A DNA stretch of 64,000 nucleotides from Sedimentisphaera salicampi (GTDB taxonomy: Bacteria; Planctomycetota; Phycisphaerae; Sedimentisphaerales; Sedimentisphaeraceae), in contig NZ_CP021023.1 of NCBI RefSeq assembly GCF_002117005.1, positions 1 through 64,000 on the forward strand, read 5' to 3'. Position 1 is the first letter of the stretch; each line of letters begins with the position of its first letter. The notes under the pieces are model-generated. The model made no database searches, was not told where the DNA came from, and worked only from the letters and a program-made list of their open reading frames with translations. A program made the position numbers and the translations under genes. Below, one piece after another: positions 32,958 to 48,326 of this stretch.

Positions 32958-35012
32958 ATGTTTAAGGCCATATTTATTGTTGTTCTGTTTTTGTCTGCTT
33001 TTGCTGTTTTGCCATTGTGTGCGGAGACCCCGGATTTCGGCGATGATATAGGATCTGCCTTTTCAATCACGCCGGATAATGATCCAATAGAAGGAGAGCT
33101 TCAAACGGGAGCCGATATTGATTTCTTTGCCCTCACCCCAGAGCCCGAAACGGTGTATCGTGTGTTCTTTAATAACGGGTTGTCGGACAGGAAAAATTTG
33201 AAAGTCTTAATGGAAAATTCCGACTATGAGCTACGAAACATAAAAAAGCTCGATTCAAACGCTGAAACTGAATATTCCACTTTCTATTGCGAATACGGCT
33301 ATCCTGTGTACTTCAAGGTTTTCAGCGATTACAGCGCATCGGGTTTGTATCATATTGAAGTGCAGACAGTCAAAACAGTTCCTGTTGATTCGTTTTCAAA
33401 CAGCTGCTCATCCCCAACCCAACTGGATCTTTCAAGCGGCTATATTGAAACAGAAGCGGTTATAGATACTTCCGAGCCAAATTTCTCCGCAGCTCCCGAC
33501 TACTACACCTTTGATGCACTGGAAAACTACCGTTATTATATCAGCTTCGATTATCTGGACTCTTCGCAGTTAAGAGCCACTGTTCTTAATTCCAGCTGCA
33601 GCTCTCTGGTTAGTTCAGTAAATGAAGATGAGGGAATAACGCTGGTATCGAATGACGGCGGGGATTTTATAATAAAATGCGGGCATTCCCCTTACGGCGA
33701 CAGCGAAGACATAAGCGTTGGGAATTACTATTGCCTCAAGGTTTCTGCTGAAGGTCCTCTCTACGACGACTTTTCCAATTCCAAAGATTCTGCCCATCAG
33801 ATCATCCCCGGCGATGGCCCTGTAAAGGGAACTGTTTTCGGCGCTAATTACGGCGGAGATATAGATTGGTTCTATGCTGATGTAAATGAAAACTCACTCT
33901 ACCGAATTACAATAGACGGATATGACTATTCCAGATACAAAGACTGCAAGATCTATTATGCCCGAACCCCCGAGTCCGGTCATCCCGAGTCTCTTATTGA
34001 ACTTTACTCAACCTCCGAATACAACGCGATTTATTCCTACCTTTTCAGCCGAGATTATATGATAGAAGACTCCGGCAGGCTGTATATCCGTATGGCAGGA
34101 CGCCATTTCGATACGTCCTATACTGTGGCGGCAGAGCTGATTAGTGAGTTTTCGGAAGATTTGTATCCCAATACTATGGAACAAGCCCAGCAGATCCCAA
34201 CAGACAACACAAGGATTATCGGTGCTGTTCTCGGGGAATACACCGATCCGAATTATGTTACTCATCCCGATAAGGATTATTTTTACTTCGACACGCAGGA
34301 CTGGCATAAATACGAGGTGCGGGTGTCAAAGTCTGACAATGCAAATATAAATTTCGGAGTGCAGCTCACAGACCCCGCCGGTTCAACGATCATTGATTAC
34401 CACGAGGATCAGGCAGTCTTAACCTTCGTTGATACATCACAGCAAGATAAGTGGTATATATGCGTGGAAAATAAAGGCTTACATCTCGGTGGTTACTACG
34501 AGTTTACCGTGCGGGACCTGGGTTCTTTCCCCGATGACCGCCCTAGCAATTTCGACTCTTCCGATACTTTCCGCCTGCCCACAGACGGGACTTGGTATGG
34601 AGGCTCCATAGATTACTACAGCGACAGGGGAGACGATTCTGACCTCCTGCTCTTCGATATCCCTGTTTCCGGCGAATATACCTTCAATTTCTACAACAAG
34701 ATTTACAGGAAGGTCTTTTTCAAGGTTTACTACTGGGACACCGAATATCACCCTGCAATATCTAAATTTGATGTCAGCCGAGGCGAAACGGTTACTAAAA
34801 CGCATAACTTCCCTACAGCAGGCCTCGGCAGGATAGTGGTCAGCACTGAGAATAATTATACAGGAGACTATTTCGTAAGCATAAAAGATCCGTTACCCCG
34901 CTGCGGGGATGGTTATGCTCCGCCTCCAGGCGATACAAACGAAGACTGCTATGTTGATTTCCAAGACGTTGCTGCAATAGCTGAAGGCTGGCTTAATGAC
35001 ACGAATCCATAA
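32958..35012 (+). CDS. Secreted PPC-repeat protein with dockerin-like tail (paralog 1)
   Basis: 684 residues with a signal peptide (FIVVLFLSAFAVLPLCA) followed by ETPDFGDD. About five beta-rich repeats of the bacterial pre-peptidase C-terminal (PPC) type can be read, each with an aspartate-rich DxDxF core: ADIDFFALTPE, PDYYTFDALE, GDIDWFYADVN, DKDYFYFDTQD and SDLLLFDIPVS. The C-terminus has GDTNEDCYVDFQDVAAIAEGW, a single EF-hand-like dockerin motif. No enzymatic domain is recognised, so a binding or surface-display role is likely. AGGAG precedes the ATG. The following gene encodes a paralog, 48 bases downstream. Confidence 0.8.
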   Translation: MFKAIFIVVLFLSAFAVLPLCAETPDFGDDIGSAFSITPDNDPIEGELQTGADIDFFALTPEPETVYRVFFNNGLSDRKNLKVLMENSDYELRNIKKLDSNAETEYSTFYCEYGYPVYFKVFSDYSASGLYHIEVQTVKTVPVDSFSNSCSSPTQLDLSSGYIETEAVIDTSEPNFSAAPDYYTFDALENYRYYISFDYLDSSQLRATVLNSSCSSLVSSVNEDEGITLVSNDGGDFIIKCGHSPYGDSEDISVGNYYCLKVSAEGPLYDDFSNSKDSAHQIIPGDGPVKGTVFGANYGGDIDWFYADVNENSLYRITIDGYDYSRYKDCKIYYARTPESGHPESLIELYSTSEYNAIYSYLFSRDYMIEDSGRLYIRMAGRHFDTSYTVAAELISEFSEDLYPNTMEQAQQIPTDNTRIIGAVLGEYTDPNYVTHPDKDYFYFDTQDWHKYEVRVSKSDNANINFGVQLTDPAGSTIIDYHEDQAVLTFVDTSQQDKWYICVENKGLHLGGYYEFTVRDLGSFPDDRPSNFDSSDTFRLPTDGTWYGGSIDYYSDRGDDSDLLLFDIPVSGEYTFNFYNKIYRKVFFKVYYWDTEYHPAISKFDVSRGETVTKTHNFPTAGLGRIVVSTENNYTGDYFVSIKDPLPRCGDGYAPPPGDTNEDCYVDFQDVAAIAEGWLNDTNP

Positions 35013-35060
35013 CATTATAACAAAACTGAAAGCTCAAAAATGTAATCAGGAGAAAATAAA

Positions 35061-37085
35061 ATGACTGCTTTACGTTTTAATATATTATCAATCGCCGTAC
35101 TGGCTCTTTGCTGCTGCGTTTCAATGGCAGAGACGCCGGATTTTGGAAACAACTGGCAAAACGCTCATCTCTTCAATGCGGACGAAAGTTTTGTTGAGGG
35201 AGTCCTTGATGCCGGCGGAGATGTTGACTGGCTGAAATTTATACCATCCCCGCAATCAATATATGCGGTAACCTGCATCAATCCCGAATCGAACTACAAA
35301 GAATTTCAGATTTTCTCTGCTAATAAGTACAATTCGATGATCTGCGAAATTACTTCAGATGAATCTATTTTCAATACCAGCTGCACGTTTTATATTTACT
35401 GTGAAACCGCAGCACCAATCTTCATCAAGGCTTATGACGGCGCAGGCAGCTATGAAATCACCGCTATGCTCGAACAGTCCTTTGCTCTGGACTCATATCC
35501 TGATATTTGCTCCAGCCCCTACAGCATTACCTTAACAGGCGCGATTACTGTGGTTGAAGGCGTAATCGATAATGCCGATATTGCAAACCCCGACAAAGAC
35601 TGCTTTACCTTCGATGCAGTTTCCCACCAAAAATACCGTATTTACTGTACCGGCATAGATTCAACTAATGTGCGGATAGATGTGCTGGATGAAAACGGCA
35701 AGGAGCTTCAAAGCAATAAAGACGAAGTTACATACCTCTCAGAATCAGGCGCTGACTGCCGAATCCGTATTGAATCGCAAAACCGTTCGCACTGGAAGCT
35801 GGGAAACTACTATCAGCTTGTAATAGAAGATCTCGGATATATTTCAGACGACCACTCAGACCGCTTCGACTTTGCAACCACCATCAACACCGATTCTTCT
35901 ACCGTTTCAGGTTCGCTCGATTATCTGACTTCTCTTGATAATGATGAGGATATATTCGTCTTCGACTGCCCGGGAACCCGGCTGTATCGTTTCAATTATC
36001 ATGCGGATTCAACATCGCTTAAACGCCTGAAGATGTACAACTCAGGATACTACGACGTTCTCGAAAGTTTCCACAAAAGCTCTTTTCCCTACTTCGAGCT
36101 CGATCCCAATTCTTCATTCGAATTCAGTGTTGAAGAGCCTGGGCCTGTTTACATCAAGATCTATACTGAAAACTCATCTATCGGTGATGGTGAATATTAT
36201 TTCAGCATTGAGGATTTGGGTCAGATAGGCGATAACTACTCTAACGACCCCCTCGCCCCCACTCCCATCACAAGCGCAAACACAACTAAAGCAGGTACTG
36301 TTGTATTCGCTTCAGACGGCGCTGCAGCAGACTACTTTACATTCAACGCTCAGGAGGGAAAGATCTATAAAATCCGACTTTATCAGCCGTTCGGCTCGGA
36401 AGACAGCAAGATAAAATACGCCATGTATGAAGATATCTATCAAAGCCCGTTGATAGAAAGCTATGTCGACAAATATTTTGCAGCGCCAGAGGATAAAACA
36501 TACACCTTTAGAATATCACCTAATCACTCGCTTGTTAGAAATCAGGGCAGTTACTACGAGTTCACGATAGAAGAGGCCGGCTCTTTTACAGACAATCAGC
36601 CCAGCTCTTGGACTCAGGCAATGCATCTGGTGAACGATGGCTCAACCTTTAACGCTTCCATCGATTATTCCACCAACTTAAACTACGATCTCGATTATTA
36701 TTCCTTCACAGCTCCTTCCGACGGGACGTACACAATCACAGGCACCGAATACATCTCAGGGAGTTTATGGTTCAGGCTCTTCAGCAAAAAGACATATGAT
36801 TCTCCCGGATCATTTGAAGTTAGCGGAAGTGATTCCGTTTCATACAACCTCACGGCGGGAGAGTATATCCTCAAGGTGGAGCATGACAACCCGCACGGCC
36901 AGAGAACCGGCAATTATCAGATAACTGTTGAATCTCCGCCTTTCTTCTGCGGCGATCTCGACCATCCATATCCCCCGGGCGATATCAATCAGGACTGCAT
37001 AACAGATTTAAGCGATTACAGCCTGCTCGCCTCAGACTGGCTTACATGCACTGATCCGAATCCGCCTTGCAATTATGCGCCTTAA
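35061..37085 (+). CDS. Secreted PPC-repeat protein with dockerin-like tail (paralog 2)
   Basis: 674 residues, similar in layout to the preceding gene product. A signal peptide (ILSIAVLALCCCVSMA) leads into ETPDFGNNW. PPC-like repeats have cores GDVDWLKFIPS, DKDCFTFDAVS, DEDIFVFDCPG, AADYFTFNAQE and DLDYYSFTAPS. The C-terminal GDINQDCITDLSDYSLLASDW is a dockerin-like EF-hand. AGGAG lies before the ATG. The two genes look like a tandem duplication that has diverged. Function unknown; probably extracellular. Confidence 0.8.
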   Translation: MTALRFNILSIAVLALCCCVSMAETPDFGNNWQNAHLFNADESFVEGVLDAGGDVDWLKFIPSPQSIYAVTCINPESNYKEFQIFSANKYNSMICEITSDESIFNTSCTFYIYCETAAPIFIKAYDGAGSYEITAMLEQSFALDSYPDICSSPYSITLTGAITVVEGVIDNADIANPDKDCFTFDAVSHQKYRIYCTGIDSTNVRIDVLDENGKELQSNKDEVTYLSESGADCRIRIESQNRSHWKLGNYYQLVIEDLGYISDDHSDRFDFATTINTDSSTVSGSLDYLTSLDNDEDIFVFDCPGTRLYRFNYHADSTSLKRLKMYNSGYYDVLESFHKSSFPYFELDPNSSFEFSVEEPGPVYIKIYTENSSIGDGEYYFSIEDLGQIGDNYSNDPLAPTPITSANTTKAGTVVFASDGAAADYFTFNAQEGKIYKIRLYQPFGSEDSKIKYAMYEDIYQSPLIESYVDKYFAAPEDKTYTFRISPNHSLVRNQGSYYEFTIEEAGSFTDNQPSSWTQAMHLVNDGSTFNASIDYSTNLNYDLDYYSFTAPSDGTYTITGTEYISGSLWFRLFSKKTYDSPGSFEVSGSDSVSYNLTAGEYILKVEHDNPHGQRTGNYQITVESPPFFCGDLDHPYPPGDINQDCITDLSDYSLLASDWLTCTDPNPPCNYAP

Positions 37086-37164
37086 AAATATGGTTATAAA
37101 CAGGCTTGATCTTGTGCGTTTCACTGTAAAAATTGCTTAAAATGCTAAATCAATAATTGAGAAT

Positions 37165-37181
37165 ACCGCATTTTTTGCGGT
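37165..37181 (+). terminator. Weak terminator-like hairpin after the PPC-repeat genes
   Basis: ACCGCA pairs with TGCGGT around a T5 loop, 80 bases after the stop codon. There is no clear T-run after it. Confidence 0.35.
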
Positions 37182-37196
37182 TTGAAGAAATTTAAT

Positions 37197-37226
37197 TTGA
37201 CTTTCCGCCATCAGATTTTGTATGAT
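37197..37226 (+). promoter_or_regulatory. Predicted promoter of the beta-helix protein gene
   Basis: TTGACT (37197-37202) and TATGAT (37221-37226) are spaced by 18 bases, about 100 bases ahead of the start codon. Confidence 0.5.
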
Positions 37227-37326
37227 GGAGTCAGCGAGCTGATTAGATTAGCTCCACCCGCCGATACACTTCAAGCAGCCCGTTATGTTGTTCATTAATT
37301 ATGTTGTTTTTCATAGGAGTTTTAAA

Positions 37327-39516
37327 ATGAATTATTTGAAATTATTATTAGTTATTGCTGTTTCAGTAGCTCTTGTCTCGCCCGGCTTATCTGTTGAAAA
37401 TAACGATCCATGGGAATACACCTATACCGATAATTTCGAAACAGACAAGGCAGTTGATGACAGCTACGACCATTCAGTTTTCTGGCCTGAGGCTGCATTC
37501 CCGCCGGCAGAGCCTTATCTTGTTTACACCAGCATCTATCACACTGATTCGGTGAATCAAAGGGGAGTGCTGTTTAACGATTTCAAGGGTAAGCTTGCGC
37601 ATCTGAATTACTGTTTCCCTCTGGTTTCCGCGCAGAATGCTGATGCGGTAAAGGGCTATATTGAGTTCGATCTGAAGATGGAAGATAATAACGATGATTC
37701 GCAGGTAAGCCGCAGGGGCTATTTCTGCTATTCGGTTTCTTCAGACGGTCATCAATGGACAAAGCCTGCAGCTCTTAAGTCCGGCCACCAGAAACTCGAG
37801 CTTTACTCAGATGAAGGCACGTGCTACATCAGCCTTCGTGGACGTGATGCGTTTATAGATAATCTTTCGGTAGCCCTAAAAGTAGAGCATGATGAGCCTG
37901 ATGTTATAAACGTGCCTGAAGACTACCCAACCATTCAGCAGGCGGTAGATGCTGCTCAGGACGGACAGACTGTTCAAATTGCCCCGGGAACATACTCAGG
38001 CCAGGGAAATGTAAACATCGATCTGCTCGGGAAGGCAATAACAGTGCGCGGGGCAAAAGGACCGAGAGCAACCGTTATAGACTGCTCTGTGATTATGCCT
38101 GCAGTGGAAGACCCGCCGCAAAAGATTATCTCACGAGGTTTCTATGTTCATCAGGGCGAGAGGCGTGATACCGTTATAAGAAATCTTACGATTGAAAACG
38201 GTTTCGTGAGCGGCTCTGAAATCCCAGAAGATGATATGCGTTGGAATTTATCGCCTGAGCATCCGATCGGAGCGGGGATTTACTGCGAGTTTGCAAGCCC
38301 CACAATCAAAAACTGCATTATCACTGACTGTCGCACAGAAATGGGAGCCGGAATTGGCTGTGTTGGCGCCCATCCGGACATCTCATTCAGCAGAGTTCAC
38401 GACTGCAATGCAGGGGGATTCGGCCCTTGCGAATCAGGCGGTTTTGGAGCAGGCATTGGGTTTATAAGGCATTCCTCTCTAAATATAACCAACTGCAGAG
38501 TTGTGAGAAATTCCGCATACTACAACAGCAAAGGAGCAGGGCTCTACTGCCGGAGAAGCAGGGCAAAGATCTACGGTTCAACCTTCAGCAGCAACAGCGC
38601 AGACGGCAATTTGTTAGGCGGCGGCGTTTACTGCGGAACCGGTTCGGAAATGATGCTCAAAAACTGCGTTGTTTCCAACAATCTCGCAAACTGCGGAGCG
38701 GGAATCTTTGCTCATAGGAGGCTGGCGAGCGAGGTTTCTGCTCTTGAGGCCCCCGTTTTTCCCCGCACCTCAATCAGGGTGGAGAATTGTACAGTTGCAA
38801 ACAACAGGCTCGTTAATCCTATGCCGATTTATCCCGGCGCAGGAATACACGCCCGAGCTGCTGATATAAAGGTAAGCAGCTCCATTGTATGGTACAACAG
38901 TCCCACGCAGATTGTGATTTATAAATCTCCCCATAAGTTCCCCGTAACATACTCCAATGTGCAGGGGGGCTATCCAACATCTGAGGCTGTTCTTGATAAT
39001 TACGGGCCGGACGACGGGCTCGAGCCTCTAGCAGGAGACACCACAGACGATTACTACCAGCAGCTCAGCCTCGTTGAATGCCCGGGCAATATCGATAAGG
39101 AGCCGCTGTTTGCAGATCCTGTTCTCCCGATTGTTGACTACCATCTAAAATCTAAAACTGGAAGGTACGTTCCAGGCAGAGTGGTAAGCGCAAGCGGGAA
39201 CGTAAGCCCTGGGCAATGGGTGAAAGATGATGTCCACAGTCCGAGCATTGATTCTGGCAATCCGTTTATGCCTTTCAAAGAGGAGCCTATGCCGAACGGT
39301 TTCAGGCTCAATATGGGAGCCTACGGAAACACAAATCAGGCAAGCAAGAGTATGCCTTGGCACATCCTCGAAAAGGGCGGCTTCGGCGAGGATATCAGAA
39401 GCCCCGATATCAACAAAGACGGCATCATTGATTATGAAGATATTGTGAAGATGGCAGAGCAGTGGCTTCAGGGATTCAAAGGCTACGGAATACAGACACA
39501 TCCCCCGCAAGATTGA
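37327..39516 (+). CDS. Secreted right-handed parallel beta-helix protein with dockerin-like tail
   Basis: 729 residues from the ATG at 37327, preceded by AGGAG (37315-37319); a frame open to 37285 is longer but lacks this site. A signal peptide (LKLLLVIAVSVALVSPGLS) is followed by a domain of about 170 residues of unknown type. Then comes a beta-helix beginning NVPEDYPTIQQAVDAAQDGQ, the usual opening of pectinesterase/NosD-like helices, with coils such as GAGIYCEFASPTIKNCIITD. The C-terminal DINKDGIIDYEDIVKMAEQW is a dockerin-like EF-hand. No polysaccharide lyase catalytic motif was identified, so enzyme activity is not claimed. Confidence 0.85.
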   Translation: MNYLKLLLVIAVSVALVSPGLSVENNDPWEYTYTDNFETDKAVDDSYDHSVFWPEAAFPPAEPYLVYTSIYHTDSVNQRGVLFNDFKGKLAHLNYCFPLVSAQNADAVKGYIEFDLKMEDNNDDSQVSRRGYFCYSVSSDGHQWTKPAALKSGHQKLELYSDEGTCYISLRGRDAFIDNLSVALKVEHDEPDVINVPEDYPTIQQAVDAAQDGQTVQIAPGTYSGQGNVNIDLLGKAITVRGAKGPRATVIDCSVIMPAVEDPPQKIISRGFYVHQGERRDTVIRNLTIENGFVSGSEIPEDDMRWNLSPEHPIGAGIYCEFASPTIKNCIITDCRTEMGAGIGCVGAHPDISFSRVHDCNAGGFGPCESGGFGAGIGFIRHSSLNITNCRVVRNSAYYNSKGAGLYCRRSRAKIYGSTFSSNSADGNLLGGGVYCGTGSEMMLKNCVVSNNLANCGAGIFAHRRLASEVSALEAPVFPRTSIRVENCTVANNRLVNPMPIYPGAGIHARAADIKVSSSIVWYNSPTQIVIYKSPHKFPVTYSNVQGGYPTSEAVLDNYGPDDGLEPLAGDTTDDYYQQLSLVECPGNIDKEPLFADPVLPIVDYHLKSKTGRYVPGRVVSASGNVSPGQWVKDDVHSPSIDSGNPFMPFKEEPMPNGFRLNMGAYGNTNQASKSMPWHILEKGGFGEDIRSPDINKDGIIDYEDIVKMAEQWLQGFKGYGIQTHPPQD

Positions 39517-39531
39517 TTTTGTTAACTGAAA

Positions 39532-39557
39532 AAGGGCAGCCGATTTGTGCTGCCCTT
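39532..39557. terminator. Bidirectional terminator between the beta-helix gene and trmO
   Basis: A 9-bp stem AAGGGCAGC / GCTGCCCTT with an 8-base loop lies between convergent genes. The plus strand continues GCTGATTTT and the minus strand gives TTTTTC. Confidence 0.75.
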
Positions 39558-39619
39558 GCTGATTTTCCGGCCTTCCGGAACAAGCGGGAGAGCTCCCTGC
39601 TTTAATGCTTGTGATGTGT

Positions 39620-40096
39620 TCAGCGGTCTCCGGATTTGCTTTTGTTCATCCCGTTCACCTTCCCCTCAAGCCAGCCGAGCCTGATATCTCCCTGTGGATT
39701 CAATTCCGGCACATACGGCTTTATATCGAGCACTGGGCTGGCCTCTGCCATATCGATGCCCGCGATGTGCAGCTCTCCTCCTTCCATGCTGATAAGCCGA
39801 ACCACCGATACGCCGATTGGATTCGGCCGGTATGGGCTTCTCGTAGCGAATACCCCATGCCGCCGGCCGTCCCAAGGGGGATGAGCCTTCAGGCTCGGCT
39901 GGCTTACTCTGTGCAGATGAAAAACCACAACAATATGGCTGAACCCCTCCAAATCCTCCAGCCCGGGCAAATATTCATCAAATATCTCAATCCTGCCGGC
40001 GAGCTCAGATGCCCCCGCCGCCTGACGCGGAACCCCTGTCCCGTCTTTAAATTCGGTATGTATCCTCCCAATCGGTCTGTATCGTATCTCTTCCAT
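39620..40096 (-). CDS. trmO: tRNA (t6A37) N6-methyltransferase TrmO/TsaA family
   Basis: 158-residue protein of the UPF0066/VirR family, whose characterised member TrmO adds a methyl group to N6-threonylcarbamoyladenosine 37 of tRNA-Thr using SAM. Visible motifs are the N-terminal YRPIGRIHTEF, FSHIVVVFHLHRV, GVFATRSPYRPNPIGVS (the family signature) and LDIKPYVPELN. A plus-strand frame of 193 codons overlapping it looks like an antisense shadow. It ends the glycan region and is divergent from the helicase gene. Confidence 0.9.
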   Translation of the reverse strand: MEEIRYRPIGRIHTEFKDGTGVPRQAAGASELAGRIEIFDEYLPGLEDLEGFSHIVVVFHLHRVSQPSLKAHPPWDGRRHGVFATRSPYRPNPIGVSVVRLISMEGGELHIAGIDMAEASPVLDIKPYVPELNPQGDIRLGWLEGKVNGMNKSKSGDR

Positions 40097-40207
40097 AAAA
40101 CCTGCCTTCTAAAAGACTCAAAAATAAATTATGGGGAAGTGTTTGTTATGCTACCACCCTTATCTTTACAGTCAAGCATAGCATGAATTTTAGACATTAT
40201 TAATGTT

Positions 40208-40235
40208 TTGCAAAAAATATACAGAATGTTATTAT
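40208..40235 (+). promoter_or_regulatory. Predicted promoter of the helicase/ATPase pair
   Basis: TTGCAA (40208-40213) and TATTAT (40230-40235) are spaced by 16 bases, 45 bases ahead of the GTG start. GGAG (40270-40273) is the ribosome-binding site. Confidence 0.5.
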
Positions 40236-40280
40236 ATTAAAATAAAAGAAATAATCTTATTTTGTTAGTGGAGATTAAAC

Positions 40281-43200
40281 GTGAATAGTAGCGAAATTGA
40301 ATTGAAGATTCAGGAAATACTTTCCCAAACTACCGTGCAGCTAGCCTCATTTCTCAGTGAGGAATTAGCCGATATTTCTGAAGATTACTGGAGAGAAATT
40401 GTAAGACCATCTTTAACATATCCGCAAAAAATGTTGGTAGATCAAAAAGGAGTAACCTCTTTAGATGGATTAGATTTATCTGCGCTTCTGCGAATACTTG
40501 ACAGAAACTGGTTCGATTTATCAGGAGAATTCAATTTTTCAAAAGAGCAGCGAAACTACTTGAAGGAAATGCAGTCTATTCGTAATCGGTGGGCTCATAA
40601 AACCGCAGAGAAATTGGATTTGGAAGATTATTATAGAGACTTGGATACTATTCAGCGTTTTGTTTCTTTTATCAGCAGCAATTCTGAGTTAAAAGAATTC
40701 ATCCAAAATTACAAGGCTCAGCTACAATCCTTAGCTGCTGAGAAGGCGGAACCTGTTGATAAAACTGAAGCCAAGAATAGTACGAATTTTTCAATAAACG
40801 AATTCGTTTGTCTAAAATCATCTCCCGAAAAAAAAGGCGTAATATTAGAAATAGATGATTCAAAAGAAGAAACCCGCTATCAGATATTTATAGATTCTAA
40901 AAAGAGCTGGTTTTATGAATCTCAGCTATTTCGAGAGCCTGAAAAAGAGGAGATTAATTTCTTAACATCTGAAGAATTCAATTCAAATCTCTCCTCCATT
41001 CTCATAAGGGATCCTTCCTTTTCAAAGCTTTATTCGCTTAACTCAGCTCGAATTGATTTTATTCCTTATCAGTTCCGCCCGGTTCTCAAGCTTATGAGAT
41101 CAGATCGTCCCAGATTGCTTATAGCAGATGGGGTTGGAGTGGGAAAAACTATTGAAGCAGGGCTTATTATAAAGGAGCTTCAAGCGAGGAACAAGATTGA
41201 ATCTGTTCTCATTATATGCCCGAAGCCGTTGATAACTGAAAAAAAGTGGGAAAATGAAATGAGGAGATTTGAGGAAAAATTTTCCCCGCTTGATGGGCCC
41301 ATGATGAGGAATTGCATAAAAGAAACAAATTTGGAAGGCCAGTGGCCCCAGCAGTATGAGAAGGCAATCATTCCTTTTTCTCTGTTTGATGAAAAGCTGT
41401 TGTATGGTTCTGAAGGAAAGAAAAGAAAGAGAAAAAAGCAGGGCCTGCTTGATCTTGATCCGCCGCCAAAGTTTGATTTAGTGATCGTTGATGAGGCCCA
41501 CAAAATAAAGAACCAAAGCACCTATACACATCAGGCAACACGGTTTTTCTGTGATAATGCCGAAGCAGTTATATTTCTCACGGCAACTCCAATACAATTA
41601 GGCGGCAACGATTTATTTACCTTGCTGAACGTTATAAGGCCTGATCTTGTGATCGATGAAAACACCTATCAATCAATGATTGCCCCGAATCCCAAAATAC
41701 ACAAAGCAGTTAGTATTCTGAGGGCTCAGGAAAAAGACTGGCAATCTCAGGCTAAAGATTTACTCGAACAGGCAGCTCATACAGAGTGGGGCAGTTCAGT
41801 TATTAAAAATAAGCCCGAATTTTTAGAGATTCAGGAAAAGCTGGCTAAAAATAATTTGTCTCCAGAGCAGCGGGTGGATTTGATACGTGATATTGAAGAG
41901 CTGAATACATTTTCCGATATGATAAACAGAACCAGAAGGAGGGATATTGGAAGTTTTACAGTCCGGGAGCCTAAAACTATAGAAGCTGAGTTTACTCCTG
42001 AACAAAAAAAGGTGCATGATAAGGTTCTTGAGATACAGGCAGATGTTCTATCCTTGATTCATGATAATCAGAACATCAAGTTTATGATGAGCACAATACT
42101 GCGTCAGGCAGCAAGCTGCATCAACGGGCTTGTACCGTTTCTAAAAGATATTCTTACACGCAATTTATCCGAAATCGAAGAACTCGCCTTTCTTAATGAG
42201 TGGGATGCTTTGAAAATCGCTAAGATTCCTCAAGACATCAGAAAAATCATATCAAAAGCTGAAAACCTTGGAAGCAAGGATCCAAAATTGGAATCTCTCT
42301 TGAAAATTGTATCTGAAAAGCAAAGCGATGAAAACAACCGGATTATAGTCTTCTCAACATTCCGCCATACTTTGAAATACCTATACACAAATCTGATTGA
42401 AAACGGCGTTAGAGTTGGCCTTGTAAACGGAGATACCCCTGTAGAAGAGAGGATATGGCTTAGAGAATGTTTTGAGATGGACAGAAAAAGCGATGATGCT
42501 GTGGATGTGCTTTTGTTCAGCGAAATTGGCTGCGAGGGTCTGGATTATCAATTTTGTGATTGTATGGTTAATTACGACCTCCCATGGAATCCAATGAAAA
42601 TAGAGCAGAGGATTGGCCGAATAGACAGAAATGGTCAGCAGAGCGAAAAAGTTCTGATCTACAATATGATAACAAAAGATACTGTTGACGCTGCAATATA
42701 TGAACGCTGCCTTAAAAGGATAGGAGTTTTTGAAAGTACGCTTGGAGCAGGTGAAGAGATTCTCGGCGAGATCAGCCAGCAAATTCAGGGAATTGCCGAA
42801 GATTACCAGCTAACTGAGCAGCAGCGAAATGATAAACTTCAGCAGCTTGCCGACAACAAAATAAGGGAAATACAGGAACAGAAAAGGCTTGAAGACCGTC
42901 AGGCTGAATTTTTCGGAGTAAACTTGCCTCAGAAACAAATTGATGATGAAATAAAACACGCCACAAGTTTATGGCTTTCTCCCGAAGCCGTCCAGAGGCT
43001 TGTAACAAATTATATTCGCAAGGCTGCCGGCGAAATGGCAAGCAGTGAATTCATACTCGGTGAAGGAATTGAAAAAACACTGCGCCTTTCTGAGAATGTG
43101 AGAAGAAAGCTGCTTGAAGATTATAGGCAGATGCCTAAGGGCAAAAGCACAGTTGAACGCCCTTGGGAGAATTGGCTTAGCGGCGACAATCCAATGCTTA

Positions 43201-43829
43201 AAATTACATTTGATATCAGATGCGCCGCGGATAAAAGGAATGTAACTTTGATTTCTCCCCAACATCCTTTGGTAAGGCAGGCTGCTGCTAAGCTTGAAAT
43301 TACAGATAAGCCTGTAGCCTGTCTGGAAGTTTGCCAGAGCGGGATAACCTCTGGGGATTATCCTTTCGCAGTTTATAAATGGGTTTATACCGGCATTACC
43401 AAAAAAACCGAACTTATGCCGATCGCCTCTTCTAAAGAAGTAACAGAAAATCTTGAAGAGCTTCTCGCTCAGGCCTGTGATTTTGATTATGAAACTCAAA
43501 TCACAGATTATTCGTTATGGGAAGACATCGAGAGCAGCCATTATAAGCTTTGGAGTTTTGCAAGGCATAGGCATATCGAAAATGTTAGGAGTAATGCTGA
43601 ATACAAGGAAAAAAGTCTTTCTGTAAGCCACAAAGCGAGAGTGAGCAGATATCAGGATATAATCAATAATGCTGATGATGATAAAATAATTCGAATGAGA
43701 ACAAGCGAATTGAAATCAGCAGAAATGGATTATAAACAAAAAATCGAAGAAATACAGGCAGCCCCTCAACGAGCCGATTTAAACAGTGATATAGTAGCAT
43801 ACGGTATTTTAAGAGTGAAGGAGTGTTGA
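40281..43829 (+). CDS. HEPN-SNF2 helicase, candidate defence protein
   Basis: 1182 residues. The N-terminal Swt1-like HEPN domain (about 1-150) keeps the RNase motif Rx4H as RNRWAH (101-106). A small SH3-like segment follows (about 172-222). The SNF2/RapA helicase has Walker A GVGVGKT (284-290), DEAH (404-407) and TAT (434-436). Its second lobe includes VFSTFRHTLKYL, SEIGCEGLDYQ and the motif VI QRIGRIDRNGQ. A long C-terminal region follows with helical linkers. The helicase may move on DNA or remodel a complex while the HEPN part cuts RNA; both roles are inference. GTG start with GGAG at spacing 7. The next gene starts one base after the stop. Confidence 0.85.
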   Translation: MNSSEIELKIQEILSQTTVQLASFLSEELADISEDYWREIVRPSLTYPQKMLVDQKGVTSLDGLDLSALLRILDRNWFDLSGEFNFSKEQRNYLKEMQSIRNRWAHKTAEKLDLEDYYRDLDTIQRFVSFISSNSELKEFIQNYKAQLQSLAAEKAEPVDKTEAKNSTNFSINEFVCLKSSPEKKGVILEIDDSKEETRYQIFIDSKKSWFYESQLFREPEKEEINFLTSEEFNSNLSSILIRDPSFSKLYSLNSARIDFIPYQFRPVLKLMRSDRPRLLIADGVGVGKTIEAGLIIKELQARNKIESVLIICPKPLITEKKWENEMRRFEEKFSPLDGPMMRNCIKETNLEGQWPQQYEKAIIPFSLFDEKLLYGSEGKKRKRKKQGLLDLDPPPKFDLVIVDEAHKIKNQSTYTHQATRFFCDNAEAVIFLTATPIQLGGNDLFTLLNVIRPDLVIDENTYQSMIAPNPKIHKAVSILRAQEKDWQSQAKDLLEQAAHTEWGSSVIKNKPEFLEIQEKLAKNNLSPEQRVDLIRDIEELNTFSDMINRTRRRDIGSFTVREPKTIEAEFTPEQKKVHDKVLEIQADVLSLIHDNQNIKFMMSTILRQAASCINGLVPFLKDILTRNLSEIEELAFLNEWDALKIAKIPQDIRKIISKAENLGSKDPKLESLLKIVSEKQSDENNRIIVFSTFRHTLKYLYTNLIENGVRVGLVNGDTPVEERIWLRECFEMDRKSDDAVDVLLFSEIGCEGLDYQFCDCMVNYDLPWNPMKIEQRIGRIDRNGQQSEKVLIYNMITKDTVDAAIYERCLKRIGVFESTLGAGEEILGEISQQIQGIAEDYQLTEQQRNDKLQQLADNKIREIQEQKRLEDRQAEFFGVNLPQKQIDDEIKHATSLWLSPEAVQRLVTNYIRKAAGEMASSEFILGEGIEKTLRLSENVRRKLLEDYRQMPKGKSTVERPWENWLSGDNPMLKITFDIRCAADKRNVTLISPQHPLVRQAAAKLEITDKPVACLEVCQSGITSGDYPFAVYKWVYTGITKKTELMPIASSKEVTENLEELLAQACDFDYETQITDYSLWEDIESSHYKLWSFARHRHIENVRSNAEYKEKSLSVSHKARVSRYQDIINNADDDKIIRMRTSELKSAEMDYKQKIEEIQAAPQRADLNSDIVAYGILRVKEC

Positions 43830-43830
43830 A

Positions 43831-46800
43831 ATGAAGTCTTTTGAAGATTTGACTGCAAAACGTAAGAATTGGGTTGAGGCAAACCGTGAGAATGGTTTTG
43901 AAGAGGGTATCACAAATCTCTTAAGGGAGCTTTATCCTGATAATGCGCATTTCATATATGAATTACTGCAGAACGCAGAAGACGCTCAGGCTTCAAGTAT
44001 TAATTTCAACTTATATGCCGATAAACTTATAGTAAGGCATAACGGGAGAAGGCAGTTTGATTATAATGATGTAGAATCTATTACCAGCATAGGAAAAAGT
44101 ACGAAATCATCTGATGCAACAGCCATAGGAGAATTTGGGGTAGGTTTCAAGGCTGTATTCTCTTATACAAATACTCCTCGCGTCTATTCAAAGGATTATA
44201 ATTTTCAAATTAGTGATCTTGTAGTTCCCGAACAGGTGCTTGAGAGGAAGGGGATCGGCAATGAGACTGTTTTTGAATTCCCTTTCAATAATCCTTATAA
44301 ACCTAATGAAAAAGCGTTTCAGGAAATAGAAAAAGGCTTGTACGATTTGAAAGAAAATACGCTTCTGTTCTTAACTAATATCAAAAGCATTAACTTCTAC
44401 ATTGATTCAGAAGAACGCATAGAAGGCAGTCTCAAGAGTGAAATGGGGAAAGACAACATCCTAAGGCTTTCCCGAGAAATAAATGATGAGATATCAACAG
44501 ATTACTGGCTCAGATTCCAGAAAAAAGACATTCCTGTAGAAGATGAGAAGGGGGGAACAAAAAACTGCACTGTTGCAGTTGCCTATAAACTCGAAAAAAT
44601 AGAAACAGAAAACAAGAAGGGAGTTAAGGCCACCAGATACAAGATAGTACCCTATGAAGACGCAGGAGTATCAATATATTTTCCAGCAGTTAAGGAAACA
44701 ACCGGGCTGAAATTTCAGATTCATGCCCCATTCGCATCAACTGTAGCAAGGGACAGCGTCCGAGACTGTGAGGAAAATGAAAGATTGGTTGAGTATTTGG
44801 CAGATTTGATTGCTGAAAAAATGGCCGATATTAAAAAATTAAAAATGCTCGATATCGATTTCCTGTCGATCTTACCTTCCTCTAAAATGGCTATAGAAGA
44901 TTTTTATGAGCCTATTAGAGAAAGGCTGATTGAAGAATTTGATGAAAAAGAATTGCTGCCTATGAGAGCTGGTGGGTATTCAAAGGCTGGGGATGTTTAC
45001 CGAGGCTCTGAAGAGATGGGTGGCTTGATTTCAGATGCTGATTTAGCTGGTCTGCAGGATTGCAGCAGTAAAAAACCTCTCTGGGTTAAAAGTCCACCCA
45101 AAATTAACGATTTTTTAAGTATGTTAGACGTTTCATCTTTTACTCCTGCTAATTTGTTAATTATAGCTTTCAATCCCGAAAAATTGCCCAAGCTTATTGA
45201 GATTATGGAAAAAAAGGTTCCAGCTGACCATCTTAAATTATACGACTTAATCTATAAGGCTACTAAAAGTAAAGAAGAACCTGTAATAATAAATGGGAAG
45301 TTACAAGAAATTCCGATTATTCTAACGCAAGATTGGGAATACAAATCTGGTAGTGTGTGCTATTTTAAAAACACGGATTATGAATTGAATGAGGGGCGTT
45401 ATTTCATAAATGATGAAGTAATAAATGATGAAAATCCCGCCAAAAGGGAAGCGAATGAAATTTTACTGCGTAATTTTGGTGTGCAGGAATTTGTTTTTGA
45501 AGAGCTTGTAAAAAATATTCTTGAAGATAAATACGATCGCCCTGATTTAGCTATTGATAACAAACATTACGCGAAGGATCTTAAGCTTTTCATGGAATTG
45601 ACACAAGAAGACAGGTATAATCGTAATTATCTTAAAGATTTGTTCAGTAAGTATTACATATTTAAGGTTAATGAAGACACATGGTGCAAGCCATCAGAGA
45701 TTTTTATTGATAGTCCCTTGTCGGAAACAGGCTTAAGCGAATATTTTAATTTATTAAAAAAATATTCAGACAAGTATTCATTTTCAAATACTGAGCAGTA
45801 TCGAAATGAAGTTGCAAAAAAACATAAGTTGCCTTATGAAATGACTGATTTATTGAATTGCAGTGAATCTGAACTGTTTGTTTTTGCAAACAAAGCTGGT
45901 TGCAAAACCGATTTAGAAGTCTTTAAGGACGAAGGTTCTGAATATAAACATTTTTATGTTGAAACACGAGATAGATCTATGACTGAATATATATTCGAAT
46001 CTGTAAAAAGTTTGGCATTGGCGAAATTGTTATGGAGGTTTATTTCTAATTTGTCCAGTGAGGCTCTTTATGAATGGTCAAGACCAGACGGAAGATATAA
46101 TTTTGAAAGATCGTATAAGCCTAAAGTTGTGGATGGCGAGATTGTCAAAAAGTTCAGAGCTTCTGCTATATTGAAGCCAGCCTCGGATAATTCTTGGGTT
46201 CCTCAAAAAACTAAAAATGGTTTTACCTTTGTTTTGCCAAGAGAAGCTTCAAAGGAAATGTTGCCTGAAGATTTATGTGATTATCCCAAAAATAATTGGC
46301 TAGAAGTCGTAGAATTTGGAAAAACTTTATATGAAGAAGAAAAAAAACGCCATCAGGAAAAACGCAAAGAAGAAGAGTTTGAAAAAATCTTAAAAGATAA
46401 ATATGGCATTTCATTATCTCAATTAAAAAAGTTAATACCCAGTGGTAATACTCAAGTCAGCTCTATTACCTCCCATTCATCAGGCACTGTTGAATTCCCT
46501 GAAAGAAAAGCCTACAATTGCGAAAGGCGTATGAATAAAATCATAGATGATTATAATTCAGCTCCAGTGAAGGAATACAAAATGGTTGAGATAAGCCAGA
46601 GGATTTCAAGGTCTTCTTCTGACCCTAAATCGTATTTATCAGATCAGTATACAAACATTGATGATTTTTTAGTGTGTCAAATATGCAAAGAGGAAATGCC
46701 GAAGAAAAAATATAATGATTATTATTTTGAAGCAGTTGAAGCATTTGATAACGATATAATCAAAAAAGAGCATGAAGCCCCATATCTTGCCCTTTGCCCT

Positions 46801-47001
46801 GTTTGCGCTGCCAAATATAAAGAGTTTATAAAAAAGGGCAGGAACGGCGAATTGAAAGAGCTCAGAGATAAACTTTTATCGTTAGATGATAACGATTTAG
46901 AAGTTTCTATAACTCTTAGCGAAAGTGATACCGTCCCGACTATACGATTTACTCAGCAGCATTTGATAGATATCAAGGCTGTGCTTAGCCAGGAATCTTA
47001 A
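43831..47001 (+). CDS. Sacsin/HSP90-type ATPase protein with C-terminal zinc motif, candidate defence protein
   Basis: 1056 residues. The N-terminal GHKL ATPase domain of the sacsin type has N-box YELLQNAEDAQ (43-53, Glu44/Asn48/Asp51) and VRHNG (68-72) in place of the usual DNG. The glycine-rich lid is GKSTKS...IGEFGVGFKAVF (89-110). A long, unclassified middle follows, then a charged helix (EEEKKRHQEKRKEEEFEKI). Near the C-terminus CQICKEE and LCPVCAAKYKEF give a CxxC/CxxC zinc-binding pair that resembles an HNH treble clef but lacks a visible catalytic His. It is coupled to the HEPN helicase gene. The middle is much richer in A+T than the ends. Not recognised as a named defence system. Confidence 0.82.
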   Translation: MKSFEDLTAKRKNWVEANRENGFEEGITNLLRELYPDNAHFIYELLQNAEDAQASSINFNLYADKLIVRHNGRRQFDYNDVESITSIGKSTKSSDATAIGEFGVGFKAVFSYTNTPRVYSKDYNFQISDLVVPEQVLERKGIGNETVFEFPFNNPYKPNEKAFQEIEKGLYDLKENTLLFLTNIKSINFYIDSEERIEGSLKSEMGKDNILRLSREINDEISTDYWLRFQKKDIPVEDEKGGTKNCTVAVAYKLEKIETENKKGVKATRYKIVPYEDAGVSIYFPAVKETTGLKFQIHAPFASTVARDSVRDCEENERLVEYLADLIAEKMADIKKLKMLDIDFLSILPSSKMAIEDFYEPIRERLIEEFDEKELLPMRAGGYSKAGDVYRGSEEMGGLISDADLAGLQDCSSKKPLWVKSPPKINDFLSMLDVSSFTPANLLIIAFNPEKLPKLIEIMEKKVPADHLKLYDLIYKATKSKEEPVIINGKLQEIPIILTQDWEYKSGSVCYFKNTDYELNEGRYFINDEVINDENPAKREANEILLRNFGVQEFVFEELVKNILEDKYDRPDLAIDNKHYAKDLKLFMELTQEDRYNRNYLKDLFSKYYIFKVNEDTWCKPSEIFIDSPLSETGLSEYFNLLKKYSDKYSFSNTEQYRNEVAKKHKLPYEMTDLLNCSESELFVFANKAGCKTDLEVFKDEGSEYKHFYVETRDRSMTEYIFESVKSLALAKLLWRFISNLSSEALYEWSRPDGRYNFERSYKPKVVDGEIVKKFRASAILKPASDNSWVPQKTKNGFTFVLPREASKEMLPEDLCDYPKNNWLEVVEFGKTLYEEEKKRHQEKRKEEEFEKILKDKYGISLSQLKKLIPSGNTQVSSITSHSSGTVEFPERKAYNCERRMNKIIDDYNSAPVKEYKMVEISQRISRSSSDPKSYLSDQYTNIDDFLVCQICKEEMPKKKYNDYYFEAVEAFDNDIIKKEHEAPYLALCPVCAAKYKEFIKKGRNGELKELRDKLLSLDDNDLEVSITLSESDTVPTIRFTQQHLIDIKAVLSQES

Positions 47002-47011
47002 TTGTTTTCAT

Positions 47012-47968
47012 TTACTCCATTCCGTTGAGGCCGATTAGCAGGTCGTATAGCATAATGAATGCTGGGATGGTTATTATAGAGGCCATAAAGCTTGTGAAGA
47101 TAAACTGATTTGTAATGTGTCTCTCGCCGCCGCAGCGTTCAGTCATAACAGAAAGCGAAGTTATCGGCGGCACAGCAGCCTGAAGCACAATCATAAACCC
47201 CACCGGCTTCGGGATATTCAGGAAGAAAACGGCCGCAAGGGCGATAAGCGGGAAAATGATGTTTTTGGCAATGGTAAACTTCACCGATTCTGCGAGTTTG
47301 AATTCGCCCTTATCCCTGAAATCGATATAGATGCTCCCGCCGAGGATCATCATAAGCAGCGGTGCTGCGGTTCGGCCTGTGAGCTTGAGGGCGTGCACAG
47401 CAAACTGCGGCACAAACTCCGCCAGCCCGGTAAGCACGAGCGTAAGGGCGATTAGGGTTGCGATGAGCACGGGGTTGAATATCTTGGAGAGCGGGATTTT
47501 GGCGTTTCTGCTGCCGTGAAAAAAGAGATTCACAGCCGCAAAATAGAACGGCGGGAACAGCAGAGTAAAAAGGAAAAGCTCTGTAACCAGCGGATTTTCA
47601 TCCGAAAAAACGCCCGTAATAATCGCAAGCGGAAAGAAAACGGCATTATTGAACACCAGCCCCGAGCGGAATTCCTCCCTGAAGCTTTTCTTAGCGGCAA
47701 ACGAAAGCAGGAATGCTGCAATTATCCCCGCAATCATAAAGCCAGCCCACCATAGAGGCCTTGTCCACCAGTCCGGCATATCCTCCGGATTAAAGGAGGT
47801 GATTATCTTCGAGAATACAAGCGCAGGCAGCGCCACGTCCACAGCGATCGTTGCAAGAACGCTGATTGCCTTCTCCGGAATCACTTTTCGAATTATCAGA
47901 AAAAAGCCCGTAAGCCCGATTAAGAGCAATGCGGCCACTGCTTCAAATGTTGTTATGAAAATCTGCAA
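47012..47968 (-). CDS. AEC-family (auxin efflux carrier-like) transporter
   Basis: 318 residues with about ten hydrophobic segments in the two five-helix halves usual for AEC carriers such as malonate or malate permeases. Typical pieces are the N-terminal VAALLLIGLTGFFLIIRKVIPEKAISVLATIAVDVALPALVFSKI in parts, LLMMILGGSIYI and QAAVPPITSLSVMTERCGGE. The cargo is unknown, perhaps an organic acid. It converges with the sacsin-like gene, with 10 bases between stops. Confidence 0.88.
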   Translation of the reverse strand: MQIFITTFEAVAALLLIGLTGFFLIIRKVIPEKAISVLATIAVDVALPALVFSKIITSFNPEDMPDWWTRPLWWAGFMIAGIIAAFLLSFAAKKSFREEFRSGLVFNNAVFFPLAIITGVFSDENPLVTELFLFTLLFPPFYFAAVNLFFHGSRNAKIPLSKIFNPVLIATLIALTLVLTGLAEFVPQFAVHALKLTGRTAAPLLMMILGGSIYIDFRDKGEFKLAESVKFTIAKNIIFPLIALAAVFFLNIPKPVGFMIVLQAAVPPITSLSVMTERCGGERHITNQFIFTSFMASIITIPAFIMLYDLLIGLNGME

Positions 47969-48326
47969 TTATTGCTCCTGTAAACAATTTGACCAGCCGG
48001 ATTATCTATCAACTCTTAACGCTGTCAATTTGTTTTCAGAATATCTGCCTCAGAAAGCGATCGCCGGCTTTTGCCTGCAACATTCATCGCAGATTCCCGT
48101 TCCCGCATTCTGCGTCTGATTTGCCCTCCTTAGTCCTAAACGTCTAAATCCTGAAAATATCAGTGAATAATTAGCAGCGATTGGCGGCTGGTAAGATAAA
48201 TGTCTTATCAAAAAACTCGCATAAGCAGGGCAGCATCTTTTCAATTCAATGTAGAAGTTTTGTTTACAATCTGTTAAAATACTGCGGCAGGTAAAATTTT
48301 ATCTTTAAGGATTGCAGAGGGTATAG
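47969..48326. other. Divergent intergenic region between the AEC and MscS genes
   Basis: 358 bases with no coding region supported. It contains a short inverted repeat GATAA / TTATC near 48200 and an extended -10 element (48272-48280) for the downstream channel gene. Nothing else is recognised. Confidence 0.5.
48272..48280 (+). promoter_or_regulatory. Extended -10 promoter element of the MscS-like gene
   Basis: TGTTAAAAT has the TGn extension ahead of TAAAAT, 46 bases before the ATG. No well-placed -35 box is seen. Confidence 0.35.

What the first reader, a model, noticed from the sequence alone, without database searches (positions are those of the whole stretch)
40281..47001. HEPN-SNF2 helicase plus sacsin-type ATPase: candidate two-gene defence system
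Two large genes are separated by one base. The first product joins a Swt1-like HEPN domain with an intact Rx4H RNase motif (RNRWAH) to a RapA-like SNF2 helicase. The second starts with a sacsin/HSP90-type GHKL ATPase and ends with a CxxC/CxxC zinc module. Eukaryotic sacsin has both the HSP90-like ATPase and a HEPN domain, so the same two parts are found here in separate proteins of one operon. A helicase as sensor, a GHKL ATPase as switch and HEPN RNase as toxin would make an abortive-infection device (inference). I do not recognise it as any named system.
Basis: partly seen in the sequence, partly recalled or inferred. Interest (0 to 1): 0.78.

Follow-up and report, generated by a model that had tools for sequence, protein, structure and literature searches.

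The report
Helicase plus exchangeable sacsin-type ATPase defence pair
Two neighbouring bacterial genes form a mobile module, probably against phages or other invading DNA, in which a conserved helicase (here with an RNA-cutting domain) is paired with a sacsin-like ATPase that close relatives swap for unrelated versions, as if it were an interchangeable recognition part.

Summary
P1 (40281-43829) is a Swt1-type HEPN domain with an intact Rx4H motif fused to a RapA/DrmD-type SNF2 helicase. One base later, P2 (43831-47001) is a sacsin/HSP90-type ATPase ending in a CxxC/CxxC module. The pair is a clean 6.9-kb, low-GC insertion: a species of the same genus has the flanking genes 12 bp apart. Close helicase relatives in many phyla, on plasmids and in viral-catalogue contigs are followed by a P2-type gene, often inside or beside restriction-modification operons, so a defence role is well supported by context. 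New result: P2 is mosaic. Loci with 84-96% identical helicases carry unrelated P2 ATPase and/or middle regions, usually before a conserved P2 tail. I infer that P2 is an exchangeable specificity subunit, the helicase a constant motor, HEPN an accessory RNase effector. No named system fits as a whole (closest DISARM DrmD, Tiamat TmtA, Hma/Type-1 BR); HEPN-SNF2 fusions were noted in 2013. No activity was tested.

The parts
40097..47010 (.). inserted segment: two-gene module absent from a congeneric genome
   Evidence: G294 matches the window at 33576-40096 and 47011-48042 with only 12 bp in between (genes located); local GC 34-41% against 45-50% around it
40281..43829 (+). P1: HEPN_Swt1 + RapA/DrmD-type SNF2 helicase, 1182 aa, GTG start
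   Evidence: Pfam, PADLOC and NCBIfam; alignment A1, 48-54% identity to 15 relatives; GC 39.7%
40335..40676 (+). HEPN_Swt1 domain (P1 residues 19-132)
   Evidence: PF18731, 6.3e-17; all-helical in the predicted model, pLDDT about 80
40581..40598 (+). Rx4H catalytic motif RNRWAH (P1 residues 101-106)
   Evidence: R, x4, H kept in all 14 relatives with a complete HEPN (RNRWAH, RNHWAH, RNRLAH, RNNWAH)
41103..42635 (+). SNF2 motor, two RecA-like lobes (P1 residues 275-785); GVGVGKT 284-290, DEAH 404-407, QRIGRIDR 776-783
   Evidence: PF00176 and PF00271; motifs conserved in A1
43341..43700 (+). P1 C-terminal alpha/beta plus coiled-coil region (residues 1021-1140), the part of the helicase that drops most in identity where P2 has been exchanged
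   Evidence: sliding identities, predicted structure; docking to P2 is inference
43831..47001 (+). P2: sacsin/HSP90-type ATPase with C-terminal zinc module, 1056 aa
   Evidence: PF25794, NF047352, TmtA profile 190 bits over residues 5-754; GC 35.4%
43876..45141 (+). GHKL ATPase plus Hsp90/GyrB-like middle domain (P2 residues 16-437); E44, N48, D51, G100, G103, G105, T146, R307 invariant
   Evidence: VIA-align Z 15.4 to human sacsin SR1 (rmsd 2.7, 173 aligned, residues 20-204), Z 13-15 to Hsp90 and GyrB N+middle; invariants; correspondence to Hsp90 Glu33, Asn37, Asp40, Gly118/121/123 from PMC9880540
45091..46470 (+). hypervariable, exchangeable middle region of P2 (residues 421-880)
   Evidence: mean pairwise identity 19-33% against 48-56% (first 120 residues of the ATPase) and 47-59% (tail); replaced between close relatives
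46498..46998 (+). P2 C-terminal constant tail (residues 890-1056)
   Evidence: up to 88% identical between loci whose other P2 parts are 15-39% identical
46675..46686 (+). first CxxC (C949, C952) of the zinc module
   Evidence: invariant in A2; no Pfam family
46795..46806 (+). second CxxC (C989, C992) of the zinc module
   Evidence: invariant in A2

Best explanation
A horizontally mobile two-gene anti-invader (most likely anti-phage) module. P1 is a constant DNA motor of the RapA/DrmD/BrxH type that, in this locus and in 16 of 27 related loci, carries an N-terminal HEPN RNase. P2 is a sacsin-type ATPase that acts as the exchangeable recognition and gating subunit: its ATPase holds the complex in an inactive or searching state, its variable middle region senses an invader feature or partner, and its conserved zinc tail docks on the helicase. 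On recognition P2 releases the helicase, and in HEPN-bearing versions the HEPN RNase, which would cut RNA and stop the infection (abortive outcome); HEPN-less versions must act through the motor alone or with neighbouring restriction enzymes. Shown here: domain make-up, intact motifs, gene pairing, insertion, R-M association, optional HEPN, mosaic exchange of P2. Inferred: RNase activity, complex formation, what is sensed, abortive outcome. In the window itself exchange could not be seen, because no relative with a helicase over 68% identical was found.
For: Empty site in the congener G294 and low GC (39.7 and 35.4% against a mean of 47.4, sd 3.2). Pairing: 28 distinct helicase relatives, 26 with a P2-type gene next and 2 with one ~200-aa gene between (many of these were found through P2, but helicase-first hits of 39% or more in viral, plasmid and phylum searches also have it where flank allows). 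R-M or defence surroundings: L061 type III Mod/Res + HARE-Mrr, L064 HsdR + HARE-Mrr, L096 HsdS/HsdR + HARE-Mrr, L097 type III, L050 DUF499, L047 Eco57I methylase, L052 C5-methylase + MutH-like + Vsr, L084 Vsr, L094 AbiEi, L068 TIR; conjugative plasmid. Rx4H kept in all complete HEPNs. Mosaic P2: L061/L053 helicase 90%, P2 39/30/15/19%, tail 88%; DNA identity 88.8% runs to the helicase end, vanishes, and returns at 87% in the last 487 bp. L061/L096: 93.4% DNA through HARE-Mrr-HEPN-helicase, another P2, a decayed piece of the old tail left behind. L061/L052 and L050/L064 break after the ATPase. L098/L100 and L049/L056 show no break.
Against: No activity, complex or phage phenotype was measured. 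Exchange of P2 shows variability, not that P2 senses; effectors are also swapped in conflict systems. The window's own locus is not in a defence island. HEPN could be regulatory. P2 keeps the phosphate-binding and catalytic residues of Hsp90 but has His at what I align with the adenine-contact Asp79, so ATP use is likely, not certain.
Confidence: 0.5

Rival explanations
1. DNA-level restriction accessory: the helicase acts with neighbouring R-M or BREX-like enzymes (as DrmD, BrxH or HmaA do) to move on or expose invader DNA; P2 is a structural ATPase and HEPN only a backup.
For: Closest helicase profiles are DrmD, BrxHI and HmaA; six or more loci lie in or beside R-M operons, some with overlapping genes; HEPN is optional; a Type-1 BR/Hma-like operon of the same class holds an SNF2-NOV_C helicase directly followed by a sacsin-type ATPase.
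Against: The window and many other loci have no nuclease or methylase next to the pair; the companion R-M type changes while the pair stays.
Confidence: 0.25
2. One reading: helicase is the sensor, the GHKL ATPase a generic switch, HEPN the toxin of an abortive-infection device.
For: Domains and motifs are as described; helicase sensors are known, for example Hachiman HamB (PMC10925250 abstract).
Against: The HEPN is missing in 11 of 27 loci and the helicase is the most conserved part while P2 is exchanged wholesale, the reverse of what a variable sensor and constant switch would give.
Confidence: 0.15
3. P2 is itself the swapped effector (or a chaperone of one) and the helicase plus zinc tail the constant sensing platform.
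For: In modular conflict systems effectors are also exchanged; TmtA, the Tiamat protein listed by PADLOC, matches P2 over residues 5-754.
Against: No nuclease, NADase or other effector domain was found in P2; the ATPase fold stays the same through exchanges, only its sequence and the middle change.
Confidence: 0.1
4. Housekeeping RapA-like transcription or stress function with a chaperone partner.
For: RapA is the nearest solved helicase; Hsp90 and sacsin are chaperones.
Against: Sporadic: 3 of 293 other genomes of the phylum have the helicase at 39% or more identity; precise absence in a congener; R-M operon and plasmid contexts.
Confidence: 0.04

Closest known systems
DISARM helicase DrmD (PADLOC PDLC02623; NCBIfam NF038317)
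   Same: SNF2 helicase homologous over about 815 residues; best PADLOC match, 385 bits
   Different: 312 bits against an equivalog cut-off of 610; extra HEPN; partner is a sacsin ATPase; no DISARM gene flanks the pair
Tiamat TmtA (PADLOC PDLC03972 and others)
   Same: P2 residues 5-754 align with TmtA 8-767 at 190 bits: same ATPase and middle
   Different: P2 lacks the TmtA region 768-1302, has a zinc tail instead, and stands beside a helicase gene; Tiamat is, to my knowledge, a one-gene system
Hma / DUF499-centred Type-1 BREX-related (BR) systems (PMC12839542; HEPN-DUF499 first noted in PMC3710099)
   Same: same part list: HEPN_Swt1, SNF2 helicase and, in L071, a sacsin ATPase behind the helicase
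   Different: there HEPN is fused to the DUF499 ATPase, and a methylase and an SNF2-NOV_C helicase complete the system; here HEPN is fused to the helicase and there is no DUF499 or methylase of its own
HEPN-SNF2 fusions noted in 2013 (WQE_15321, PMC3710099)
   Same: Swt1-family HEPN fused to a SWI2/SNF2 ATPase, predicted active
   Different: no sacsin partner, exchange or system described there in the passages read
Eukaryotic sacsin
   Same: its SR1 domain is the best solved relative of the P2 ATPase
   Different: sacsin's HEPN is of the HEPN-T family, not Swt1-like; no helicase; so the shared pair of parts is probably convergent
Type I R-M specificity subunit HsdS (analogy only, from general knowledge)
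   Same: constant motor genes beside a subunit whose recognition parts are exchanged by recombination between conserved segments
   Different: no sequence relation; what P2 recognises is unknown

Membership tests
DISARM | DrmD helicase at equivalog level | tested here: not met
   312 bits against cut-off 610 for NF038317, 145 against 950 for NF038318
DISARM | drmA, drmB, drmC and a methylase in the same operon | tested here: not met
   flanking genes are trmO, a membrane transporter, a beta-helix protein and an MscS channel; nothing else lies in the insertion
Tiamat (TmtA) | sacsin-type ATPase and middle region homologous to TmtA | tested here: met
   190 bits over P2 5-754 / TmtA 8-767
Tiamat (TmtA) | full-length TmtA (1300-1780 positions) | tested here: not met
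   no match to profile positions 768-1302; P2 ends in another, zinc-binding tail
Hma / Type-1 BR | DUF499 ATPase and DUF1156/N6 methylase next to the helicase | tested here: not met
   absent in the window's insertion; present in L071; a DUF499 gene lies upstream of the pair in one relative, L050
HEPN RNase (Swt1-like) | HEPN family match with Rx4-6H | tested here: met
   PF18731 62.4 bits over 27.5; R101 and H106 in RNRWAH, kept in 14 of 14 complete relatives
HEPN RNase (Swt1-like) | RNase activity | not testable with these tools
   needs biochemistry
GHKL ATPase, sacsin type | Bergerat fold with catalytic Glu, Asn, Asp and the GxxGxGF motif | tested here: met
   E44, N48, D51, G100, G103, G105, F106 invariant, matching Hsp90/sacsin residues in PMC9880540; sacsin SR1 Z 15.4. 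The adenine-contact Asp appears as His70 here
Anti-phage defence system | protection against phage | not testable with these tools
   only genomic context was tested: mobile, sporadic, R-M linked

The most novel reading that the evidence does not exclude
A sacsin/HSP90-type ATPase serves as an exchangeable specificity subunit: cassettes coding for its ATPase and/or middle region are swapped by recombination between a constant HEPN-helicase gene and a constant 3' tail, giving one effector motor many recognition ranges, a bacterial use of the sacsin module that I found described nowhere.
Probability: 0.45. Interest if true: 0.82.

Novelty: new variant of a known kind. Interest (0 to 1): 0.62.

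Why it matters
If right, it adds an unnamed, widespread helicase-plus-ATPase defence module and gives bacterial sacsin-type ATPases, whose role is unclear, a testable job as swappable recognition subunits. The natural swap pairs (L061/L053, L061/L096, L050/L064) are ready-made tools for asking what such an ATPase senses, and the optional HEPN separates recognition from killing. It may also bear on sacsin itself, whose Hsp90-like domains are of disputed function.

Tried and rejected
HEPN as essential toxin: rejected, 11 of 27 loci lack it; one apparent lack (L052) was a frame change, HEPN found by tblastn. DISARM, Tiamat and Hma membership: failed. Zinc tail as a known family: no Pfam match over cut-off for eight tails. 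Tail as a degenerate HNH treble clef: profile comparison inconclusive (E 0.0045, probability 8%). Repeated hairpin units in the P2 middle: only weak pairwise signals (best E 0.001), not claimed. Replacement effector in HEPN-less loci: small neighbour genes (rhizobial ~180 aa, L054/L059 ~200 aa, L069 201 aa) have no Pfam match and no shared Rx4H. VIA-align on P2 listed only GHKL folds for residues 16-437; the rest is untested by fold. The P1 model has low confidence in the helicase core (mean pLDDT 63), so only its HEPN and C-terminus are used. Promoter and repeat scans gave nothing above chance; ten terminator-like sites against 5.5 expected fit no operon feature. Literature searches for a sacsin-SNF2-HEPN system found none; subscription papers are not held, so a published description could have been missed.
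Full report
1. What is there. The two ORFs are as described: P1 40281-43829 and P2 43831-47001, one base apart, each with a good ribosome-binding site. P1 carries HEPN_Swt1 (PF18731, residues 19-132) with R101-N-R-W-A-H106, then an SNF2 helicase. Its best family matches are DISARM DrmD (385 bits in PADLOC; 312 bits in NCBIfam, below the 610 cut-off), BrxH, HmaA and RapA; RapA is the nearest solved structure by sequence and fold. P2 carries the sacsin-type ATPase (PF25794, NF047352) and matches the Tiamat protein TmtA over residues 5-754. Human and lizard sacsin SR1 are its nearest solved relatives, and the model of residues 16-437 resembles the ATPase plus middle/transducer part of Hsp90 and GyrB. 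The catalytic Glu (E44), Asn (N48), Asp (D51), the GxxGxGF motif and a candidate catalytic Arg (R307; its equivalence to sacsin Arg474 is my inference) are invariant in 18 aligned sequences. The C-terminal CxxC/CxxC module is invariant but matches no Pfam family.

2. It is an acquired segment. GC is 39.7% (P1) and 35.4% (P2) against a mean of 47.4% (sd 3.2) for the other large ORFs of the window (profile). In a congeneric genome (G294) trmO and the transporter gene that flank the pair lie next to each other with 12 bp between the matched blocks, so window bases 40097-47010 are missing there. In 40 relatives only one other genome (G127, same family) has the pair, at another place, with P2 split into two ORFs, and the two helicases are not sisters in the tree. 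In 294 genomes of the phylum the helicase at 39% identity or more occurs in three genomes besides the window's own.

3. It is a conserved pair. A genome scan with P2 gave 23 loci from many phyla; viral-contig, plasmid and phylum searches added more. Of 28 distinct close helicase relatives, 26 have a P2-type gene as the next gene (including one weak match, L095, and one match on the opposite strand, L092) and two have one ~200-aa gene between. Many of these were found through P2, so the count is biased. The bias does not apply to the helicase-first hits: three rhizobial plasmids, the viral contigs with enough flank and the three top phylum genomes all have P2 next to it, and so does a more distant helicase (28%) on a Methanomethylovorans plasmid, whose neighbour is annotated as a chaperone of the HSP90 family.

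4. The HEPN is optional. It is present in 16 and absent in 11 of the 27 relatives that can be scored; the tree needs at least four changes. In all 14 complete cases R and H are kept. So selection keeps the RNase motif where the domain exists, yet the core works without it.

5. Surroundings. Relatives sit inside or beside restriction-modification or defence genes: type III Mod/Res plus HARE-Mrr nuclease in L061, with overlapping genes; HsdR plus HARE-Mrr in L064; HsdS, HsdR and HARE-Mrr in L096; Mod/Res in L097; a DUF499 ATPase in L050; an Eco57I methylase in L047; Vsr, C5-methylase and a MutH-like enzyme in L052; Vsr in L084; AbiEi in L094; TIR in L068; an ABC-three-component system in L098; a conjugative plasmid in L099. 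The window's own neighbours are ordinary. L071 and L072, Hma-like operons, have a helicase followed by a sacsin-type ATPase; in L071 the other parts are a DUF1156 methylase and HEPN_Swt1-DUF499, so the same parts recur in another arrangement.

6. P2 is a mosaic. Across 22 pairs of genes, mean identity is 57% for the helicase and 33% for P2. In pairs of loci with close helicases the drop is abrupt. L061/L053: helicase 90%, P2 residues 1-150 39%, 151-420 30%, 421-640 15%, 641-860 19%, tail 88%. L061/L096: helicase 96%, whole P2 25-34%. L061/L052: helicase 84%, ATPase 97 and 91%, middle 44 and 33%, tail 65%. L050/L064: helicase 94%, P2 79, 62, 44, 20%, tail 64%. L048/L045 show the reverse, ATPase 48/36% but middle 56/58% (sliding windows). 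At DNA level L061/L053 match at 88.8% up to the helicase end, then not at all, then at 87% over the last 487 bp of P2; L061/L096 match at 93.4% through HARE-Mrr, HEPN and helicase and stop at the helicase end, and L096 keeps a frameshifted piece of the old P2 tail just downstream of its new P2. L048/L059 show the same pattern. Pairs L098/L100 and L049/L056 are uniformly similar, as unswapped controls. Several of these loci are metagenome-assembled, but L061 and L050 are isolates and the pattern recurs in independent pairs, so misassembly is an unlikely cause. In L049 and L056 two P2-type genes stand behind one helicase, the first truncated in L049.

7. Mechanism. Constant motor and effector with an exchanged partner is the logic of a specificity subunit (known for HsdS, from general knowledge). 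I therefore propose that P2 recognises and gates, and that P1 acts, with HEPN RNA cleavage as an accessory, probably abortive, output. The P1 C-terminal alpha/beta and coiled-coil region (residues 1021-1140) shows the largest identity drop within otherwise near-identical helicases when P2 has been swapped (73-75% against about 90% in L061/L053; 87-88% against 92-100% in L061/L096), consistent with a P2-contacting surface; this is inference, since the region is also less conserved in general. RNase activity, complex formation and the trigger are not shown.

8. Known or new. HEPN-SNF2 fusions were listed in 2013 (PMC3710099) and HEPN_Swt1-DUF499 systems are known (PMC12839542). I found no description of the helicase-sacsin pair as a system, nor of P2 exchange, within an open-access library only.

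Noticed in passing
L071:1-14102 and L072:1-12118: Hma/Type-1 BR-like operons in which a helicase is directly followed by a 1378-1452 aa sacsin-type ATPase; in L071 the helicase is SNF2 with NOV_C and the operon holds a DUF1156 methylase and HEPN_Swt1-DUF499. The sacsin gene was not found mentioned for these systems in the papers read.
   Followed up: partly
L085:5040-15118, L087: 1718-aa protein joining a sacsin-type ATPase to an SF1 helicase (AAA_11/AAA_12) directly behind two genes resembling a type III Mod/Res pair on contigs catalogued as viral; another sacsin-plus-helicase combination.
   Followed up: partly
L049:8678-13885, L056:6220-13186: Two P2-type genes in tandem behind one helicase in Poribacteria; in L049 the first lacks the ATPase, as if cassettes accumulate and decay.
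   Followed up: partly
L096:14790-15119: Frameshifted remnant of an older P2 tail lies just downstream of the replaced P2 gene, a footprint of exchange.
   Followed up: yes
L095:11588-16300: HEPN-helicase followed by a 1570-aa protein with two separate sacsin-type ATPase matches (around residues 85 and 730).
   Followed up: no
L067:9824-14277 (G127): P2 is split into a 371-aa ATPase ORF and a 1088-aa ORF with the middle and tail.
   Followed up: partly
L054:8901-9509, L059:3935-4582: A ~200-aa gene without Pfam match (48% identical in the two loci) sits between helicase and P2.
   Followed up: partly
L098:10235-10765, L099:10226-10780, L100:10239-10769: On rhizobial plasmids a conserved ~180-aa gene, by eye like a sigma-factor or HTH protein, overlaps or abuts the HEPN-less helicase gene; no Pfam match for the two scanned.
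   Followed up: partly
window P2 model against viral structures: Phage RIIA proteins are among the viral fold matches of P2 (E 2.5e-7 to 1e-5); they share the GHKL fold, TM-scores are low, no function implied.
   Followed up: no
window 57299-58081 and 63219-63890: Two other ORFs with unusually low GC (38-39%) for the window.
   Followed up: no
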